Of a DNA stretch of 64,000 nt, positions 4,560-64,000 are shown piece by piece. The stretch lies in NCBI RefSeq assembly GCF_027568395.1, contig NZ_JANKZL010000002.1:62001-126000 (forward strand). The letters run 5' to 3'. The DNA comes from Aminobacter sp. HY435. GTDB lineage: Bacteria > Pseudomonadota > Alphaproteobacteria > Rhizobiales > Rhizobiaceae. Numbering within the stretch: the stretch's first letter is position 1; each line of letters begins with the position of its first letter. The notes below the pieces were generated by a model. That model made no database searches. It saw only the letters and a program-made list of their open reading frames with translations, and was not told where the DNA came from. Both the position numbers and the translations under genes were made by a program.

Positions 4560-5948
4560 CTACGCTGCGCGCGTCGTCTGCTTGCGGCCGCCGAAGCCGC
4601 GACGCTTGCCACGGAACGGACGGTCGCCCTTGGGCGCGCCGCCGGGCGCACGATCGCCGCCGGCGAAATGCCCCTTGGACTTGCCACCATTGTTGCCGCG
4701 CGGCTTCTGGCCCTGCGGGCGGCGCTCGTCGCGGTCGCCCCGGTCGTTGGCCGGCTCATAGCGCGGCTCGCCTGCCGGACGCTGCGGATCGGGCAGAGCC
4801 AGATGGTCGGCGTCGACCGGCAACTTCATGCGGATGATCCGCTCGACCTGCTTGAGCTTGGCGTTCTCGCTCGGGTCGACCAGCGTGACGGCGATGCCGT
4901 CGGCGCCGTTGCGGCCGGTGCGGCCGATGCGGTGGACGTAGCTTTCGGCTTCGTCGGGCAGGTCGAAGTTCACGACATGGCTGATGCCGGGCACGTCGAT
5001 GCCGCGAGCGGCAATGTCGGTTGCAACCAGGATGCGCACGGAACCGTCACGGAAGCCGTTGAGCGCCTTCTGGCGGGCATTCTGCGACTTGTTGCCATGG
5101 ATGACCGCTGCTTCGAAGCCATCGCGCTCGAGATCGCGGGTGACGCGGTCAGCGCCGTGCTTGGTGCGGGCGAACACGATCACCGAACGCATCGCCTCGT
5201 CGGCCAGCATGTCCGACAGGATCTTGCGCTTCTGCTTGGTGCGGGCGAGAACGATGCTCTGACGGATCTCGGCGGCGGTGGTGCCCTGAGGGGCAACTTC
5301 GACGCGCAGCGGATCGCGCAGCAGGCCCTTGGCCAGCTCAGCGATTTCAGCCGGCATCGTTGCCGAGAAAAGCGCGGTCTGGCGAGCCTTCGACGTCGCC
5401 TTGGCAATACGCTTGACGTCGTTGATGAAACCCATGTCGAGCATGCGGTCGGCTTCGTCGAGGACGAGCCACTGCGTGTCGGCAAGCACCAGGTCGCCTT
5501 CGCGGACCAGATCGGTCAGACGGCCGGGCGTGGCGATCAGCACGTCGACGCCGGGGCTGATCTTCTTGACCTGCGAGAAGCGCGACACGCCGCCCAGCAC
5601 GAGCGCCGTCGAGATGTGTGCTCCCTTGGCGAGGATCTTGATGGTGTCTTCGATCTGCACGGCAAGTTCGCGCGTCGGCGCAAGGATCAGCGCACGGGCC
5701 GTCTTGGGCCGGCGCTTGGTGCCGAGCGTGATGATCTTGGACAGGATGGGAAGCGCGAAGGCAGCGGTCTTGCCCGAGCCCGTCTGGGCGATACCGAGAA
5801 TGTCCCGGCCTTCAAGCTGCGCGGGGATCGATTCGACCTGAATCGGCTTGGGCTCGGTGTAGCCAGCCGCGAGGGTGGCCTTGAGCAGAGCGCCAGTAAT
5901 ACCGAGTTTGGCGAAGCCGTTCAGCTCCGCATTGTTTTCGTTCGTCAA
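4560..5948 (-). CDS. DEAD-box ATP-dependent RNA helicase
   Basis: A 462-residue RhlE-like helicase that remodels RNA duplexes in ribosome assembly or mRNA decay. In order: Q motif (GYTEPKPIQ), motif I AQTGSGKT, motif Ia PTRELAVQ, motif II as LDEADRMLD, motif III SAT, and motif VI HRIGRTGR. The C-terminal tail of about 90 residues is rich in Arg, Gly and Lys (for example RGNNGGKSKG) and probably binds RNA non-specifically. I used a TTG start at 5948, preceded by a GAAGAAGA purine run, because the homologous N-terminus begins at TNENNAELNG. The 20 codons upstream look non-coding. Confidence 0.92.
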   Translation of the reverse strand: MTNENNAELNGFAKLGITGALLKATLAAGYTEPKPIQVESIPAQLEGRDILGIAQTGSGKTAAFALPILSKIITLGTKRRPKTARALILAPTRELAVQIEDTIKILAKGAHISTALVLGGVSRFSQVKKISPGVDVLIATPGRLTDLVREGDLVLADTQWLVLDEADRMLDMGFINDVKRIAKATSKARQTALFSATMPAEIAELAKGLLRDPLRVEVAPQGTTAAEIRQSIVLARTKQKRKILSDMLADEAMRSVIVFARTKHGADRVTRDLERDGFEAAVIHGNKSQNARQKALNGFRDGSVRILVATDIAARGIDVPGISHVVNFDLPDEAESYVHRIGRTGRNGADGIAVTLVDPSENAKLKQVERIIRMKLPVDADHLALPDPQRPAGEPRYEPANDRGDRDERRPQGQKPRGNNGGKSKGHFAGGDRAPGGAPKGDRPFRGKRRGFGGRKQTTRAA

Positions 5949-16119: not shown

Positions 16120-17976
16120 ATGGCGGCTGAGGCATCGGGCAGCGAACTGATTCAGGTTGTGGCGCTGCTTGCCGCCGGAGTGGTGTCGGTTCCCATATTC
16201 AAGAGGCTCGGCCTCGGCTCGATCCTGGGCTACCTGTCGGCAGGCATCGTCATCGGACCGTTCGGGCTCGGTTTTTTTTCGGAAGCGGAAACGATCCTGC
16301 ACGTCGCCGAACTCGGCGTGGTGATGTTCCTGTTCATCATCGGTCTCGAAATGCAGCCGTCGCGATTGTGGGGCCTTCGCCGTGAAATCTTCGGACTCGG
16401 CGCCTTTCAAGTCGGCCTGTGCGCCCTGCTGCTGACCGGTGTGGGCTTTGTCACCGGCTTCCCTGCCTCCCAGTCCTTCGTCGCCGGCGCGGGCTTCGTC
16501 TTGACCTCGACGGCCATCGTCATGCAGTTGCTCGAGGAGCGCGGCGAACTCGGCACGCCCAGGGGCCAGCGCATGGTTTCCATCCTCTTGCTCGAAGACC
16601 TCGCCATCGTGCCGCTTTTGGCGGCGGTCGCATTCCTGGCGCCGGTCTCGCCCACCGACCATGGCACGGGCTGGACCGAACGGTTGCATGACATCGGCAT
16701 TGGCGTCGGCGCCATCGTCGGGCTGATCTTCGCCGGCCGCTACCTGCTCAACCCTCTGTTTCGCGTCCTGGCCAATTCGCGAGCCCGCGAAGTCATGACG
16801 GCGGCAGCACTGCTCGTTGTGCTGGGATCGGCGTTGGCGATGCAGATGAGCGGACTTTCGATGGCGATGGGCGCGTTCCTCGCGGGCGTTCTGCTGTCCG
16901 AATCGACCTTCAGGCACCAACTGGAGGCGGACATCGAGCCCTTCCGCGGCATCCTGCTCGGCATGTTCTTCATCGCGGTGGGCATGTCGCTTGATCTGCA
17001 GGTTGTCGCCGCCAACTGGCGGATGATCGCATTCTACGTCGTCGTCTACATGATGATGAAGGGCGCCGGCATCTACGTCGTCGCTCGCATCCTGCACGCC
17101 GGGCACCGCGAGGCCCTGGAACGCGCCGTGGTCATGGCCCAGGGCGGCGAATTCGCCTTCGTGCTCTACTCGTCAGCGCTCGCGGTCGGCATCATCGACG
17201 GTGAAGCCAACGCCGTCCTGACTGCCATCATCATTATCTCGATGGTGCTCACCCCGCTCGCCATCACGGTGCTGCGCCGTTTCACGCCACGCGACGAGCA
17301 ATCGCTGGAAGGCGTCGATGTGGCGCAAGAACTGAGCGGAAGCGTGCTGGTCATCGGCTTTGGCCGCTTCGGCCAGATCGCCAGCCAGCCGCTATTGCTG
17401 CGCGGCATCGATGTCTCGATCATCGACAACGACGTCGAGATGATCCAAGCGGCGGCCGACTTCGGCTTCAAGGTCTATTATGGCGACGGTACCCGCCTCG
17501 ACATCCTGCATGCGGCCGGTGCGGGCCGGGCACGCGCGGTCCTGATCTGCGTCGACAAGGAAGAAGTCGCGGTGCGCATTGCCGAGCACATGAAGGCGGA
17601 ATTTCCGCTGGTGCCGGTGCTGGCGCGCGCATTCGATCGCGGCACCGCGATCCAGTTGATCCGGGCGGGCGTAGCCTACCAGTTGCGCGAGACATTCGAA
17701 TCGGCGCTGCTGTTCGGCGGCACGACCCTAGAACAGCTCGGCGAAGACCCAAGCACGGTTGCCGAAGTGATCGAAGACGTGCGTGCCCGCGACGCCGCGC
17801 GCCTCGATACGCAGATAGCCGGCGACATTCGGTCGGGCCGCGACTACCTGCAGGGCAACATCCCCGCCCCCGTGCCGGCACCGCTCACCCCGCCGCGCCG
17901 CAGCGCCAAGGCGCTCAACGAAGAGGCGGCAGACGCGCTCAGCAAGAAGGCGATCGAACAGGCTGAAAGGAAGTGA
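16120..17976 (+). CDS. Kef-type cation:proton antiporter (CPA2) with TrkA-N domain
   Basis: A 618-residue transporter. About 12 membrane helices fill residues 1-385, with the family motif GYLSAGIVIGPFGLGF near residue 38. A cytosolic NAD-binding TrkA-N domain follows (VLVIGFGRFGQIA). The design matches KefB/KefC, glutathione-gated K+ efflux systems that acidify the cytoplasm during electrophile stress. The C-terminus is a short charged tail. The ATG at 16120 has GGGAG five bases upstream and is preferred to one 11 codons earlier. The following DUF924 gene is two bases away. Whether glutathione gates this protein is not visible. Confidence 0.9.
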   Translation: MAAEASGSELIQVVALLAAGVVSVPIFKRLGLGSILGYLSAGIVIGPFGLGFFSEAETILHVAELGVVMFLFIIGLEMQPSRLWGLRREIFGLGAFQVGLCALLLTGVGFVTGFPASQSFVAGAGFVLTSTAIVMQLLEERGELGTPRGQRMVSILLLEDLAIVPLLAAVAFLAPVSPTDHGTGWTERLHDIGIGVGAIVGLIFAGRYLLNPLFRVLANSRAREVMTAAALLVVLGSALAMQMSGLSMAMGAFLAGVLLSESTFRHQLEADIEPFRGILLGMFFIAVGMSLDLQVVAANWRMIAFYVVVYMMMKGAGIYVVARILHAGHREALERAVVMAQGGEFAFVLYSSALAVGIIDGEANAVLTAIIIISMVLTPLAITVLRRFTPRDEQSLEGVDVAQELSGSVLVIGFGRFGQIASQPLLLRGIDVSIIDNDVEMIQAAADFGFKVYYGDGTRLDILHAAGAGRARAVLICVDKEEVAVRIAEHMKAEFPLVPVLARAFDRGTAIQLIRAGVAYQLRETFESALLFGGTTLEQLGEDPSTVAEVIEDVRARDAARLDTQIAGDIRSGRDYLQGNIPAPVPAPLTPPRRSAKALNEEAADALSKKAIEQAERK

Positions 17977-59668: not shown

Positions 59669-60016
59669 TCAATTGCAGGCGGGGTCGATAGGGTCGCACT
59701 TGCCTTCGATTGCCTTCAGCGTGTCTTCGCCGTGCTTCCTCGCCAGCGTCGTCATGGCACCCGGGTCGGATGCCGCAGCACCGGCGCGGCCGCCCTGGCG
59801 CTGCCTGGCGCCCTGGAGCGCCGCCAGCTTCGCAGCCTTCTGGTCTTCGGTGAACTGCGGCGCCGCGACCTTCGGCGCGATGTTCAAATTCGGATAGGTA
59901 CCCGTGTCCTGCGCGCCACGCGTGCCGGACGCGAGGGGAGCCGTGTCGACGGTGCTCGTGCTCGAGCAGCCGGCGACCGCGAGCGGCAACACGGCAACTG
60001 TCGCGGTCAACATCAT
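59669..60016 (-). CDS. Predicted lipoprotein
   Basis: A 115-residue protein with a lipoprotein signal (MMLTATVAVLPLAVAGC, lipobox AVAGC). The mature part is Ala/Gly/Gln-rich with two cysteines near the end (KCDPIDPACN) that may pair. Function unknown. It is the last clear host gene on this side of the prophage-like region. Confidence 0.8.
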   Translation of the reverse strand: MMLTATVAVLPLAVAGCSSTSTVDTAPLASGTRGAQDTGTYPNLNIAPKVAAPQFTEDQKAAKLAALQGARQRQGGRAGAAASDPGAMTTLARKHGEDTLKAIEGKCDPIDPACN

Positions 60017-60201
60017 GCGCGCGCAGAAAAAAACATGCCGACCAACACTATATGTCATAAAGTTTCCCCGACAGGCGCGGTAGAGCGCGTTGGACCCGGT
60101 AAGACGTCACATGATAGTATGTCAATATCCCGGCGTGGCGGCGTAACGTTGATTTTGTTGCATTAAATAGGGTCGCAACAGCCCCGTGTATGACAGTCCC
60201 G
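60017..60201. other. Host-prophage junction region
   Basis: A 185-bp gap with no supported gene. On the minus strand, TTGACA at 60120-60125 could be the -35 of the lipoprotein promoter. Base composition drops to about half GC here and stays irregular to the right. The junction of host and phage probably lies in or near this gap, but no attachment core can be named from one end alone. Confidence 0.45.
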
Positions 60202-60474
60202 TTAGACAGGCGTTTGAGCGGCCCTAAGCTCCACCTGGGCATTTGCCAACAGGCGCATAACCTCGTTCAACTCGGCCACGGTAGGTTTGGCCCGCGCACC
60301 CATAGTAGCACGCTCGCCTAGGATGCGATGCGCCGCCGCCACGTTGCCGAGCGCTTCACTGAAGGATACCGCAATCATGAGCATACCGATTAGCTCTAGG
60401 AAGGTAAAGAGAAAATCCCAGGCCCATTCCTTGGCACGCATGAGGCGCGACACGTTGCGGGGCTCAGCGCTCAT
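60202..60474 (-). CDS. Small phage membrane protein
   Basis: A 90-residue protein with one strong membrane helix (AWDFLFTFLELIGMLMIAVS) near residues 18-40 and a charged helical C-terminus. It begins inside the end of the upstream gene (11-bp overlap). Holin or spanin-like function is possible from size and topology, but I recognise no family. Confidence 0.6.
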   Translation of the reverse strand: MSAEPRNVSRLMRAKEWAWDFLFTFLELIGMLMIAVSFSEALGNVAAAHRILGERATMGARAKPTVAELNEVMRLLANAQVELRAAQTPV

Positions 60475-60772
60475 TGGTGGCGGCCTCCGCCCGCTTGTCG
60501 GCAATCGTGAAGTGGTGCGAGTAGACCCCAGCGCGAACCCAGACATAGAAGTCGCCGCCATCCGCCATATGCCAGTCGCCGGCCCAACCCAGGCGCTCCG
60601 CCAAGGCCTTTGCGGCGGCCTCATGGTTGCCTACGCTGTCTAACAGATGATCCCAGTTAAGCGTTAGCGTGCGCTGTTCACCTGGACGGCCACTGTCCAT
60701 CACGCTGGCCTTAACGCGACTGCTACGTGTGTTCGTATAGCCTAGATAGGCGGTCTTGATTGCAACGGGCAT
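60464..60772 (-). CDS. Hypothetical phage protein
   Basis: A 102-residue protein (begins MPVAIKTAYLGYTNTRSSRV). It has WDHLLDSVGNHEAAAKALAE and DFYVWVRAGVYSH segments. The ATG at 60772 has AGGAG upstream with good spacing. It overlaps the next gene by 11 bp. Function unknown; phage origin rests on context. Confidence 0.6.
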   Translation of the reverse strand: MPVAIKTAYLGYTNTRSSRVKASVMDSGRPGEQRTLTLNWDHLLDSVGNHEAAAKALAERLGWAGDWHMADGGDFYVWVRAGVYSHHFTIADKRAEAATNER

Positions 60773-60838
60773 GGCTTGAAGTCTCCTCAACATGCTGCCC
60801 CGCTTGATTGCCAGGCAGTGGCGCACAGTGGCCATGTA

Positions 60839-60858
60839 GAGGGCCGCGCTGGGCCCTC
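60839..60858. repeat. Hairpin before a phage gene
   Basis: GAGGGCC and GGCCCTC arms with a six-base loop, lying 67 bases before the 60772 start in the 115-bp gap between two minus-strand genes. It lacks a T-run. Confidence 0.4.
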
Positions 60859-60887
60859 CTCAAAGCGACTGAGGCGGTGTTGTTGGG

Positions 60888-61250
60888 TTAGGCGTGGATT
60901 AGGCCATCATCGCCTATGTAGAGGTCCACGTTGCCGAAGCGCTTGGCGGCCTTGGTGAGCTTTGCGCCTTGCTTGTCAGGCCAATCGCCGTCCCAGAAAC
61001 CAGCGCCATGGCCGCACCGCGTGAGCCAAAAATCGTGGCCCGCTTGTGCGAAGTCCTCACAGTCGGCCAGCGTGTCCTCTGTGGCTGCATAGAAGGCGTC
61101 ACAATCGGCCCGCATCTTGGTGAGCGTATCAGGCGCGATGTCGCTGGCGTCGTGGTTTTCGTCCAGCGGCCTGGCGTCGTCGCCTGTTGAGGACCATAGG
61201 GCGGCCCCCACGTAGGCATCGAAGAATTCTTCAGGGGCGGCCATGGTCAT
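60888..61250 (-). CDS. Conserved phage-type protein
   Basis: A 120-residue acidic protein. It has a YVGAALWSSTGDD N-terminal part and a GHDFWLTRCGHGAGFWDGDW core. From memory, proteins with a DFWLTRNGHGAGFWDR-like core are common in tailed phages and some plasmids, function unknown. The start overlaps the previous gene's stop (ATGA). Confidence 0.72.
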   Translation of the reverse strand: MTMAAPEEFFDAYVGAALWSSTGDDARPLDENHDASDIAPDTLTKMRADCDAFYAATEDTLADCEDFAQAGHDFWLTRCGHGAGFWDGDWPDKQGAKLTKAAKRFGNVDLYIGDDGLIHA

Positions 61251-61582
61251 GCCCTCCCCATGATGTCGGCACGGAGGGAGTGCGGAACCAGATTAAGGCT
61301 GGCCGCGACTGTGTAGGCTTGAACCTTTGGGCCCGTGTCCCTTACCAGGGCGTCCGCAACGCTGTCGTCTGTGCCCCTGTTGAGTAGGGCGATGGCGTCC
61401 ATTGCGGCCCTGTGTGCGGCCCTAGCGCCTGCCGCGCCTGGGCTGTTTGCATGGTCGCGAGCGTAGACCCTGTGCGTTTCAGCAAGGTTGGCCAGCGCGT
61501 CGGCAAATAGCGACGGATGACACGCAAGAGACCGCAAGATAACGTCGCGGGCTGTGCATGTCGTGAAGTCGATAGGATACAT
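61247..61582 (-). CDS. Hypothetical phage protein
   Basis: A 111-residue, mainly helical protein beginning MYPIDFTTCTARDVILRSLA. GAGG precedes the ATG. It is coupled at its end to the 120-residue gene by an ATGA overlap and follows the 78-residue gene by 13 bp. No family recognised. The upstream extension of this frame is a shadow of the 78-residue gene. Confidence 0.6.
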   Translation of the reverse strand: MYPIDFTTCTARDVILRSLACHPSLFADALANLAETHRVYARDHANSPGAAGARAAHRAAMDAIALLNRGTDDSVADALVRDTGPKVQAYTVAASLNLVPHSLRADIMGRA

Positions 61583-61595
61583 CGTCGCGGCCTCC

Positions 61596-61832
61596 TCAAT
61601 AGCCAAGCCACTGGCGGACATCACGCCCAGCCACATGGGCAACCGCAAAGCCGTCAATCGGGTCTTGCTCAAAATACACAGGGAACACAGTGGCCTCCTC
61701 AAAGTACCTGTCATCACTATGGTCGCCGCCTGTTGCCGCCATGCAGGGCATAAGGCCAACCAAGCCTTCCGGCGTGTCGTACACCTGGAAGCCATTGGCC
61801 ACGATGAAAGCCTTAGCGCGTTCTGCAAGCAT
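61596..61832 (-). CDS. Hypothetical phage protein
   Basis: A 78-residue acidic protein (begins MLAERAKAFIVANGFQVYDT). It has a strong AGAGAGGGACTAAGG leader. It is the first gene of the small minus-strand operon, 66 bp from a consensus-like sigma-70 promoter. Function unknown. Confidence 0.62.
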   Translation of the reverse strand: MLAERAKAFIVANGFQVYDTPEGLVGLMPCMAATGGDHSDDRYFEEATVFPVYFEQDPIDGFAVAHVAGRDVRQWLGY

Positions 61833-61897
61833 GTCCTTAGTCCCTCTCTATCTGTGTTGAACCTTGTGGCCAACCACATGCCGAACCACAAGCCCAA

Positions 61898-61927
61898 CTG
61901 TAAGACTGAGTGCATTGCGGTTGTCAA
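61898..61927 (-). promoter_or_regulatory. Sigma-70-type promoter of the small phage operon
   Basis: Minus-strand TTGACA (61927-61922) and TTACAG (61903-61898), 18 bases apart, about 66 bp before the first gene of the operon. A CTTGTGG/CCACAAG inverted repeat (61863-61869 and 61886-61892) lies just downstream and could be a repressor site. Confidence 0.55.
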
Positions 61928-61932
61928 GTGGG

Positions 61933-62465
61933 CGGCATGAAGAAAAGCATGCGGGTGGCACAAGGGCCGGTAGACCCCATGCGCTCAAAGTGACCTAGTT
62001 GCTAACCATGGATGAGATCATAAGGGCGACCACATGGCCAACCTAATGGGCAACACTCCATGTTGGCGACCAGGTAGCGGCCCAATGTCCTCCGGTAAGG
62101 ACATGGGAGCGGTGCGATATCAAGCACTTAGGCACTAGGTTGGCCCCATGGCGGCCCAGTGCCGGCGTCCAGGTGGCGTAGTGCGGGCCTTTGGTGCGGC
62201 AGGAGGGGCACGGGGGGAATGCTCGCCGCAGCCCACACGAGAGTACGTCTCACGTGGGTGACCCCTAGTTTCATTGGGTGGGCATCAAGGGTCTAAGTGA
62301 AGTGGGGCCGGTATCCCCTCCCTCCCCACTGTCTCCTTATGGGTAGGCAGTAAGTAGGTCACTTTGAGCACAAGAGCAAAGCGAAGAGAGACGCTGCCTC
62401 CACACTGCAAGCATAGTGGGCACCCAAGGGAGGGCATAAAGTAGGGGCATGAAGTTTGGCATCAA
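61933..62465. other. Non-coding phage region rich in repeats
   Basis: No supported gene. It holds a long-range inverted repeat (GCTCAAAGTGACCTA at 61983-61997, its complement at 62355-62369), an 11-bp direct repeat GGCATCAAGGG (62281-62291; second copy 62458-62468) and a hairpin at 62232-62258 (CCCAC-AC-GAGA / TCTC-AC-GTGGG). Possible roles are a lysogeny control region, an origin, or an untranslated phage RNA. Confidence 0.55.
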
Positions 62466-62537
62466 GGGAGCCCTCCAAGGGATGATGGGGAGAGCAGGGG
62501 TGGTCTATATCTCTCTATAGAGGCACGGAGGGCTCCC
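62466..62537 (-). repeat. Long stem-loop downstream of terL
   Basis: Perfect 11-bp arms GGGAGCCCTCC (62466-62476) and GGAGGGCTCCC (62527-62537) enclose 50 bases with an inner palindrome CTCTATAGAG (62513-62522). It begins at the end of the T7-like promoter match and could be a transcription terminator or RNA-processing site. Confidence 0.6.
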
Positions 62538-62559
62538 CTGGCTATAGTCCGTCCTATTG
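62537..62559 (-). promoter_or_regulatory. T7-type phage RNA polymerase promoter candidate
   Basis: Read on the minus strand, from -17 at 62559 to +6 at 62537, 16 of 23 positions match the T7 class III consensus. Shared parts are AATA (-16 to -13), GAC (-11 to -9) and ACTATAG (-6 to +1), with AG at +4/+5. It lies about 53 bp after terL on the same strand. A phage-encoded single-subunit RNA polymerase would have to be outside the window. Confidence 0.5.
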
Positions 62560-62611
62560 GCTTCTGAGCAAAAGCGCATAGATGCCGCTATGGACACCTA
62601 CGCGCTCTCTT

Positions 62612-64000
62612 TCATCTGTTGGTGGGCCGAGTGGATGCAGGCCGACCATCAGGCCTTTTGGAGCCCCCACGGCCGACCGCTTCTTCCGTCTCGTGAAGCA
62701 GCCGCTCAAGCTCATCCTCGTAGCGGTCCTCACGGGCCCGTACAGCCATCCCCAGTGGGTCAACACCAAGCCGGGGCGCAAAGATACCGCAGGCACCCGA
62801 GAGGCTCTCCAAGCGGTCATCATGGCCCAGACAGTCACGCTCTCGCGTAAGGTGGGTGTACTGGTAGCCCCACGCATAGCGGTGGCGGCTGTCCTCGCCC
62901 TCGATCTTCTGGAGGGACGCATGGTCCCACTCGATGACCGCCCGGGAGACAACAAGCCGGTGCTGCTGGGTGATCGGCTCAAGCACACTGAGGATGCGCT
63001 TCTCCTTCTCCACCCTGCCGGACTTCACCTCTTCGATGACGGTGCCGCCGTGGTCATCCGCTCGGGCACCCTTGTTCGCCTTCTCCCACTCCTTGAAGAG
63101 AACAGGCTTCAGGAGGGCCACAAGCATGCCGTCACCGTAGTTGCTCTCCACGTAGAGAGTGGTGACGCGGAACCTTACGCAGGCCTTGGCGATAGCCGTG
63201 AGCGTCTCTATGCCGTAGCCATCGGTGTTGGCCCAGAGGTGGAGCCAGTAGAGGCGGCCGTAGAGTTCCGCCACGATGCTCAGGGAGGTTTCATCCGCCC
63301 CGCGCCCCGAGCCGTCCACGTAGCCGATGACCTCGGTGTACTTCTCGTAGACCGCCCTCTCCACTGGCACAGGGCCATAGTAGAAGTCGCCATCGTGGCC
63401 CATCACCGGGAGGTCGCGCTGGAGGTTCGTGGACCCCCATATGACCTCATCAGGGCCCATGCGGTCGTCCAGGTCCATGACGGTGAGGTCTTTGAGGCGG
63501 AGCGGGAACTTGTCCATGAAGGAGCCCGAAAGGTCCAACATGAACTGGAGCCGGAACTCCGAGTTGCCCATTGCGGCCCTGCGGCCCTCAAGGTCCTCGT
63601 CGGTAAAGCGGAAGGGCATCGTGGAGTGGCCCACAATGCTCGGCCCCTGCTTGCGCAGCTCAGCCGTGATGTACGGTGCCAGCCACTTCCCGTAGGCCTT
63701 AATCTCATCCTCGGACGGGAACAGGGCGGGCCAGATGCGGGCATCGTAGACAGGCTTGCCGTGGACATCCTTGAGGCGGAGCAGCTTGAGATACAGGCTG
63801 TCCACGTCGTGCGGGGTGCCAAGGTACTTGATGACGCCACCGGGCGTGAGGACGGACTCAAACTCCTTGACGGCCTCTTCGATCTTCTCCCGCATGACCA
63901 CAGTCAGGGAGTTCGTCTGGGTCTCCACGTCATCAGGGATGATGCAGGAACCACGGAAGCCGACGAGCTGGCCACCAATACCGAAGGCCGTGAAGGAGGC
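62612..64000 (-). CDS. terL: T7-type terminase large subunit, 5' end outside window
   Basis: The visible 462 codons run off the right edge; the first codons read AFGIGGQLVGFRGS then CIIPDDVE, the Walker B region of T7 gp19. After KYLGTPH and ARIWPALFP, the nuclease domain has D229 in GYVDGSGRGADE, E285 in YVESNYGDGM and D394-D395 in CLGHDDRLE, matching the T7 nuclease order. Translation continues in-frame to base 64000, so the GTG at 63928 is not the start. The protein packages DNA into the capsid and cuts concatemers. Missing are the Walker A motif and N-terminal part. Confidence 0.92.
   Translation of the reverse strand, partial: ASFTAFGIGGQLVGFRGSCIIPDDVETQTNSLTVVMREKIEEAVKEFESVLTPGGVIKYLGTPHDVDSLYLKLLRLKDVHGKPVYDARIWPALFPSEDEIKAYGKWLAPYITAELRKQGPSIVGHSTMPFRFTDEDLEGRRAAMGNSEFRLQFMLDLSGSFMDKFPLRLKDLTVMDLDDRMGPDEVIWGSTNLQRDLPVMGHDGDFYYGPVPVERAVYEKYTEVIGYVDGSGRGADETSLSIVAELYGRLYWLHLWANTDGYGIETLTAIAKACVRFRVTTLYVESNYGDGMLVALLKPVLFKEWEKANKGARADDHGGTVIEEVKSGRVEKEKRILSVLEPITQQHRLVVSRAVIEWDHASLQKIEGEDSRHRYAWGYQYTHLTRERDCLGHDDRLESLSGACGIFAPRLGVDPLGMAVRAREDRYEDELERLLHETEEAVGRGGSKRPDGRPASTRPTNR

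What the first reader, a model, noticed from the sequence alone, without database searches (positions are those of the whole stretch)
60100..64000. One end of a T7-like prophage in an alphaproteobacterial chromosome
A terminase large subunit with the T7 gp19 order of motifs is followed by small overlapping genes of phage type and then by host genes. T7-like phages are mostly strictly lytic, so an integrated one is uncommon. The visible end matches the late end of a T7-like genome.
Basis: partly seen in the sequence, partly recalled or inferred. Interest (0 to 1): 0.7.

Follow-up and report, generated by a model that had tools for sequence, protein, structure and literature searches.

The report
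T7-like prophage with a rebuilt integration module
The end of this window is one edge of a nearly complete T7-like virus genome sitting in a bacterial chromosome; its group of relatives appears to have lost the usual dormancy regulator and to swap in new integration genes.

Summary
Confirmed and extended. The window's right end is the late end of a T7-like (Autographiviridae) prophage of about 47.2 kb plus one unresolved G-run. Beyond the window it carries a T7-order gene set, the single-subunit RNA polymerase (split over two contigs) and two tyrosine recombinases. Integration is shown: the same 10-bp core lies at both ends, and 8 of 8 other same-genus genomes holding the locus have the empty site, just upstream of host phaC. 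T7-like prophages are known, so the kind is not new. The integration module is unusual. All 8 T7-like genomes compared outside its clade have a MarR-like regulator (five of them built the search model); in those five it directly precedes a full-length integrase. Five related phages, this one included, form a clade (support 100/98) with no detected MarR and a shortened integrase, IntB, keeping its catalytic residues. In the three with known host junctions, the attachment site lies beside another integrase (two distant types), at three places on the phage map. I read this as repeated replacement of the integrase-attachment cassette, IntB being kept for another job. IntB's role, lysogeny control and inducibility are untested.

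The parts
59669..60058 (-). host ORF (129 aa, lipoprotein-like by eye), last host gene before the prophage
   Evidence: same flank in the empty-site loci of 8 same-genus genomes; no NCBIfam hit
60118..60127 (+). attachment core TATGTCAATA at the window-side end; second copy at G000:C22:5150-5159, 30 bases before the likely phaC start codon
   Evidence: only copy in the window on either strand; flanks joined at it align with 8 of 8 empty sites
60464..60835 (-). small phage gene, phrog_3199 (unknown function)
   Evidence: relatives after terL in G069 and L065
60888..61250 (-). small phage gene, phrog_1915 (unknown function)
   Evidence: E 1.1e-22; 51% identical relative in G069
61596..61832 (-). 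small phage ORF
   Evidence: no family hit; 32% identical relative in the same order in G069
61983..61997 (.). arm of inverted repeat GCTCAAAGTGACCTA, candidate packaging or genome-end signal
   Evidence: motif core present in the corresponding region of 7 of 7 phages examined, this one included
62355..62369 (.). other arm of the inverted repeat
62612..64000 (-). terminase large subunit, T7 gp19 type (frame continues outside the window to C21:126654)
   Evidence: PHROG 38, PF22530, NF033889

Best explanation
This is a temperate T7-like phage integrated in the chromosome. SHOWN: T7-order genes run on the - strand from the polymerase to the terminase; the two ends carry the same 10-bp core; relatives have the empty site. 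INFERRED: the tyrosine recombinase IntA (567-aa frame, start codon uncertain), whose gene begins next to the far attachment site, recombined the phage circle with the phaC 5' region. Because attP lies in the early region, the prophage map is a permutation of the virion map, leaving a few early genes beyond the terminase. INFERRED: the ancestor had the usual MarR regulator plus full-length integrase. In this clade MarR and the integrase's N-terminal part were lost, the shortened IntB was kept, and new integrase-plus-attP cassettes were inserted at different places on the phage map. IntB probably now does something other than chromosomal integration; what keeps the prophage silent is not known.
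For: Terminase. Structural and replication genes in T7 order. RNAP C-part E 4.5e-87, frame running off contig C21; RNAP N-part at the start of C22; the two stop at the same GG|YW place, compared with relatives. Recombinases. Attachment cores and empty sites. G069 18-bp repeat at tRNA-Leu; G396 22-bp repeat. MarR model: hit in 8 of 8 other T7-like genomes (five in the model, refound by leave-one-out 5 of 5; G177, G380 and G232 independent); no hit inside the phage in 5 of 5 short-IntB phages. Clade 100/98 on RNAP (5 of 13 rows) and 100/99 on terL (4 of 12 rows). IntB residues R154, K184, R251, H275, Y284 invariant in 5 of 5.
Against: The polymerase gene is interrupted by an assembly break in a G-run, so its integrity is unknown. 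C21 and C22 are joined only by gene logic and the att match, not by sequence. The core is short (10 bp); 3 of 8 empty sites carry it exactly, 5 of 8 with one difference. Which recombinase acts was not tested. IntB scores just under Pfam's integrase cut-off (24.9 against 27.1 bits), though PHROG 1 hits at E 1e-19. Its start is uncertain in L065 and L066, whose frames could be 322 and 330 aa. L065 and L066 were read over 20 and 15 kb only, so MarR absence there is partial. L066 has short IntB, no IntA in the stretch read and an unknown attachment site, so IntB may still integrate in some members. Only three phages of the clade have known junctions. In G010 and G136, MarR-bearing sisters, a tRNA-Leu adjoins IntB but no direct repeat was found; the 20-21 bp match to a tRNA-Leu part at the other end is inverted, so their sites are unresolved.
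Confidence: 0.85

Rival explanations
1. A defective remnant: the phage is integrated but can no longer be produced, for instance because the polymerase gene is broken at the G-run.
For: The polymerase is interrupted at the contig break. A relative in the same genus (G306) is clearly decayed and has a 7-G run at the same motif.
Against: The major genes identified are open frames covering most of their profiles. The break coincides with a homopolymer, and the halves end at neighbouring residues of the conserved motif.
Confidence: 0.25
2. Both recombinases act together at one site (a two-recombinase integrase) rather than IntB being kept for another job.
For: G000, G069 and L065 carry both genes, and the catalytic residues of IntB are conserved.
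Against: G396 has IntB but a different integrase at its attachment site, far from intB, and L066 has IntB with no IntA in the stretch read.
Confidence: 0.15
3. Assembly chimera: free phage DNA from an active infection was joined to host DNA by the assembler.
For: The phage lies at a contig end with an artefactual-looking poly-G tail.
Against: Both junctions are seen independently on two contigs with the same core, and the joined flanks align with 8 of 8 empty sites.
Confidence: 0.03

Closest known systems
Rhizobium phage Pasto (MT708545) and Pseudomonas phage LUZ100 (OP329100), T7-like phages with lysogeny genes
   Same: T7 gene order, single-subunit RNAP with early genes before it, tyrosine integrase in the early region. 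LUZ100 RNAP is the first-listed match among phage records (36.5% identity).
   Different: They have a MarR-like regulator before one full-length integrase (358 and 357 aa); here no MarR is detected, IntB is short, and a second integrase flanks the attachment site.
T7-like cyanophages P-SSP7 and S-TIP37 (PMC8776855)
   Same: T7-like phages shown to integrate site-specifically; for S-TIP37 integrase and attP were shown to be needed (passages).
   Different: Their attP lies downstream of the integrase and matches tRNA-Leu, and no stable lysogens were found; here attP lies 5' of IntA and the target is a protein gene's 5' region.
   Same: Largely the same gene set, with relatives of IntA (33%) and short IntB (45%).
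   Different: IntA is reversed and lies between IntB and the polymerase on the circular map; the target is tRNA-Leu.

Membership tests
Autographiviridae (T7-like phages) | single-subunit phage RNA polymerase | tested here: met
   PF00940 E 4.5e-87, PF14700 E 5.1e-13, phrog_414 E 1.6e-167; gene split by a contig break
Autographiviridae (T7-like phages) | T7-type large terminase | tested here: met
   NF033889 equivalog, 543 bits against cut-off 150
Autographiviridae (T7-like phages) | T7 gene order, one transcription direction | tested here: met
   for the genes identified; HNH and kinase-like genes lie in between
Autographiviridae (T7-like phages) | direct terminal repeats in the virion | not testable with these tools
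   needs virion DNA; an inverted motif at the expected genome end is only suggestive
prophage | attachment repeats at both ends and an empty site in relatives | tested here: met
prophage | can be induced | not testable with these tools
   needs culture
MarR-integrase temperate T7-like phages (Pasto, LUZ100 type) | MarR-like regulator next to the integrase | tested here: not met
   no hit at E 0.1 in the loci holding this prophage; 8 of 8 comparison genomes hit, five of them in the model
MarR-integrase temperate T7-like phages (Pasto, LUZ100 type) | tRNA-Leu attachment site (as in the printed cyanophages) | tested here: not met
   site is the phaC 5' region; no tRNA in the window nor within 3 kb of the far junction

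The most novel reading that the evidence does not exclude
In this clade chromosomal integration has become a plug-in: distantly related integrase-attP cassettes are swapped into different places of a T7-like genome. The old integrase, stripped of its N-terminal part and its MarR regulator, is repurposed, perhaps acting at the conserved inverted repeat at the genome end. Elements (two of them sized, 19-20 kb) in four genomes of another family of the order, which share an IntB relative, a small pre-polymerase protein, a gp16-like ejection protein and in 3 of 4 an IntA relative, are satellites or derived parasites of such phages.
Probability: 0.2. Interest if true: 0.8.

Novelty: new variant of a known kind. 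Interest (0 to 1): 0.55.

Why it matters
How T7-like phages, long held to be strictly lytic, settle as stable prophages is an open question; the printed proposal rests on a MarR regulator next to the integrase (PMC10134795, passages read). A clade of integrated T7-like phages in which no such regulator is detected offers a natural test of that proposal and candidates for what replaces it. The changing position of the attachment site would explain why prophage maps of one phage group look permuted.

Tried and rejected
Ideas dropped or left open: (1) the 15-base inverted-repeat motif as a phage promoter: only its two copies occur in the prophage at up to 3 mismatches. (2) A phase-variable G-run in the polymerase gene: in 6 of 7 relatives the longest G-run at the motif is 2-4, but the closest relative, G306 (decayed), has 7; the run in G000 cannot be measured, so this stays open. 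(3) A sigma-70 promoter for phaC at the empty site: the simple scan found none on the phaC strand, so disruption of phaC transcription is inference only. (4) Fold of the pre-polymerase protein o1034: model from 2 sequences, mean pLDDT 48, no fold search made. (5) Terminase in the genomes with the IntB-bearing elements: 0 of 6 genomes searched (the four, plus G207 and G306), the tool warning that the call held no positive control. (6) The inverted motif at the annotated terminal-repeat ends of Pasto and LUZ100: no clear match. (7) Wider spread of short IntB: 5 of 397 genomes of the order (this one and the four with elements) and 1 of 385 of the class (this one) at E 1e-20.

Literature: LUZ100 paper (PMC10134795), passages; cyanophage paper (PMC8776855), outline with abstract, and passages; VarioGold paper (PMC9658991), passages; other papers only as search listings. 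In the listed rows of these six searches, which show only part of the papers found (30 of 198, 15 of 101, 15 of 152, 15 of 17, 12 of 17, 8 of 57), I saw no report of a T7-like prophage with two integrases or at phaC; most subscription papers are not held, so this is weak.
Full report
1. The observation. The terminase is genuine and of T7 type. Host genes lie to the left, and the change from host to phage falls at window 60118-60127. G+C drops from about 0.64 to about 0.60 there. ARAGORN found no tRNA gene in the window.

2. What lies beyond the window. The window is G000:C21:62001-126000; C21 ends at 164300. On the - strand, from late to early in T7 order, I found terminase, tail fibre, internal virion proteins (one with a peptidase M15 domain), tail tubular B and A, major capsid, an HNH-type ORF, scaffold, head-tail connector, polynucleotide-kinase-like and thymidylate-kinase-like genes, a second HNH ORF, exonuclease, methyltransferase, DNA polymerase, primase-helicase, MazG-like protein, amidase, endolysin, endonuclease I, single-stranded DNA-binding protein, and the C-terminal part of the RNA polymerase. 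Of the 30 ORFs given to searches matched a PHROG family at E 0.01 and 4 did not; other small ORFs were not all scanned. C21 ends in an artefactual-looking poly-G. The polymerase N-terminal part opens contig C22, so I take C22 as the continuation. The halves stop at the same GG|YW place seen uninterrupted in relatives.

3. The far end. After the polymerase N-part come o1034 (133 aa), IntB (301 aa), o2736 (longest frame 209 aa), IntA (567-aa frame), the second core at C22:5150-5159, and host phaC, a class I PHA synthase whose likely start is at 5190 (an in-frame ATG also lies inside the core). The genome has six integrase-domain matches, two of them here; IntA passes Pfam's cut-off, IntB lies just below it. 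The prophage is 42,111 + 5,087 bp plus the unresolved run. Of 10 genomes searched in the genus, 9 including this one have the phaC region; the tenth is 81% complete. The 8 others all have the uninterrupted site: 3 of 8 with the exact core, 5 of 8 with TATGTCAACA. Most of the roughly 78 bases left of the core are invariant. The core lies 30 bases before the likely phaC start, so the insertion separates phaC from its native upstream region; an effect on phaC is inference.

4. Relatives. Of 394 genomes searched in the bacterial family, 9 (this one included) had a polymerase match, one of them only a 54-residue piece. I compared six of them (G069, G010, G136, G177, G380, G232; G380's lies alone on a 44-kb contig) and the same-genus G306, a decayed remnant at another site. 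G010 and G136 carry MarR directly before full-length IntB (403, 414 aa) with a tRNA-Leu next to it; their attachment sites are unresolved, since the only tRNA-Leu match at the other end is inverted. Lo5R7ANS, Pasto and LUZ100 also have a MarR-like gene before a 357-359 aa integrase. G069 carries short IntB and a reversed IntA relative, between an 18-bp repeat at the 3' end of tRNA-Leu. A genome scan with two short IntBs gave one locus, Methylobacterium ajmalii (L064, G396), and a viral-contig scan two, L065 and L066. The phage collection (50,697 records) gave no match to IntB at E 1e-5.

5. Integration sites move. In G396 the prophage lies between 22-bp repeats at contig positions 17560 and 68072. 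Its attachment site is between amidase and primase-helicase, next to a third integrase (430 aa; no BLASTP match to IntA at E 0.01, a match to the Lo5R7ANS integrase at E 6e-11), inside an ORF that I read by eye as a terminase gene of another prophage. So the attachment site is between the small early genes and IntA-o2736 in G000, between IntB-IntA and o1034 in G069, and between amidase and primase-helicase in G396. The IntA relative in L065 has the position and orientation of that in G069. The o2736-IntB pair stays together in 5 of 5. In the three phages with known junctions the site lies beside another integrase, not beside IntB.

6. The regulator. A profile from five MarR-like proteins, refound by leave-one-out in 5 of 5, hits 8 of 8 T7-like genomes outside the clade, three of them (G177, G380, G232) not in the model. 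It hits none of the five short-IntB phages inside the phage; one hit in G069's flank (E 1.3e-4) lies in host DNA. L065 and L066 were read over 20 and 15 kb only. The short-IntB phages are one clade in polymerase (5 of 13 rows, 100/98) and terminase trees (4 of 12 rows, 100/99), with G010 and G136 as sister and the other phages outside (midpoint root). Loss of MarR and of the IntB N-terminal part in the clade's ancestor is the simplest reading.

7. IntB. All five short copies (292-301 aa as aligned; longer starts are possible in L065 and L066) keep R154, K184, R251, H275 and Y284 (numbering of G000; their catalytic role is recalled) and end at the same place. The two long relatives aligned have about 70-85 more residues in front and about 45 behind. 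I infer that IntB is still an enzyme but no longer the chromosomal integrase here.

8. Genome end. Downstream of the terminase the motif CTCAAAGTGACC occurs at up to one mismatch in 7 of 7 phages examined (the five short-IntB phages, G010, G136): 12 of 14 matches lie in 10.5 of 341 kb (overlaps of neighbouring loci counted, and for L066 the first 1,500 bases were taken as the region without seeing its terminase). In 4 of 7 (G000, G069, G010, G396) it forms inverted pairs some 310-460 bases apart; L066 has two copies in one orientation, G136 and L065 one. The host part of the window has none in 59.6 kb. Position suggests a packaging or end signal; Pasto and LUZ100 did not show it clearly.

9. 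Known and not known. T7-like prophages and integrating T7-like phages are in print (passages). The points I did not find in print, within weak searches, are the site at phaC, the lack of a detectable MarR, the short IntB and the moving integrase cassette. This is a new variant of a known kind.

Noticed in passing
L096-L097 (G447:C1:2215039-2235383), L104-L105 (G516:C18:180777-200046), L108-L112 (G544), L100-L102 (G483): Elements sharing a gp16-like protein, o1034 and an IntB relative (314-454 aa) with the window's prophage, with an IntA relative in 3 of 4. Two lie between repeats at tRNA-Leu (20.3 and 19.3 kb); the other two were not sized. No terminase, capsid or polymerase match by tblastn; a weak scaffold-like hit (88 aa, E 5e-4) in G447 and a tail-fibre-like hit in or near G544. 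Candidate phage satellites.
   Followed up: partly
L086-L088 and L064 (G396:C106:17560-68093): T7-like prophage of Methylobacterium ajmalii inserted in what looks by eye like the terminase gene of another prophage, with a 22-bp repeat.
   Followed up: partly
window 61983-61997 and 62355-62369: 15-base perfect inverted repeat after the terminase; its core motif is conserved in relatives.
   Followed up: partly
L005:9229-9300 and L030:48-72: Both contigs break in a G-run at the GGYW motif of the polymerase gene; true run length unknown. G306 has 7 G there, six other relatives 2-4.
   Followed up: partly
L034:7700-18102 (G306:C1:4627.7-4638.1 kb): Decayed relative in the same genus: polymerase with deletion and frame shift, long open gp16 frame (71% identity), o1034 relative; most other T7 genes not found by tblastn.
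   Followed up: partly
L096:13379-14095: AbiU2-like HEPN protein, a possible phage-defence gene, inside the G447 element.
   Followed up: no
L004:4536-4907: HNH/LAGLIDADG-like ORF between scaffold and capsid genes, overlapping the upstream end of the longest capsid frame.
   Followed up: no
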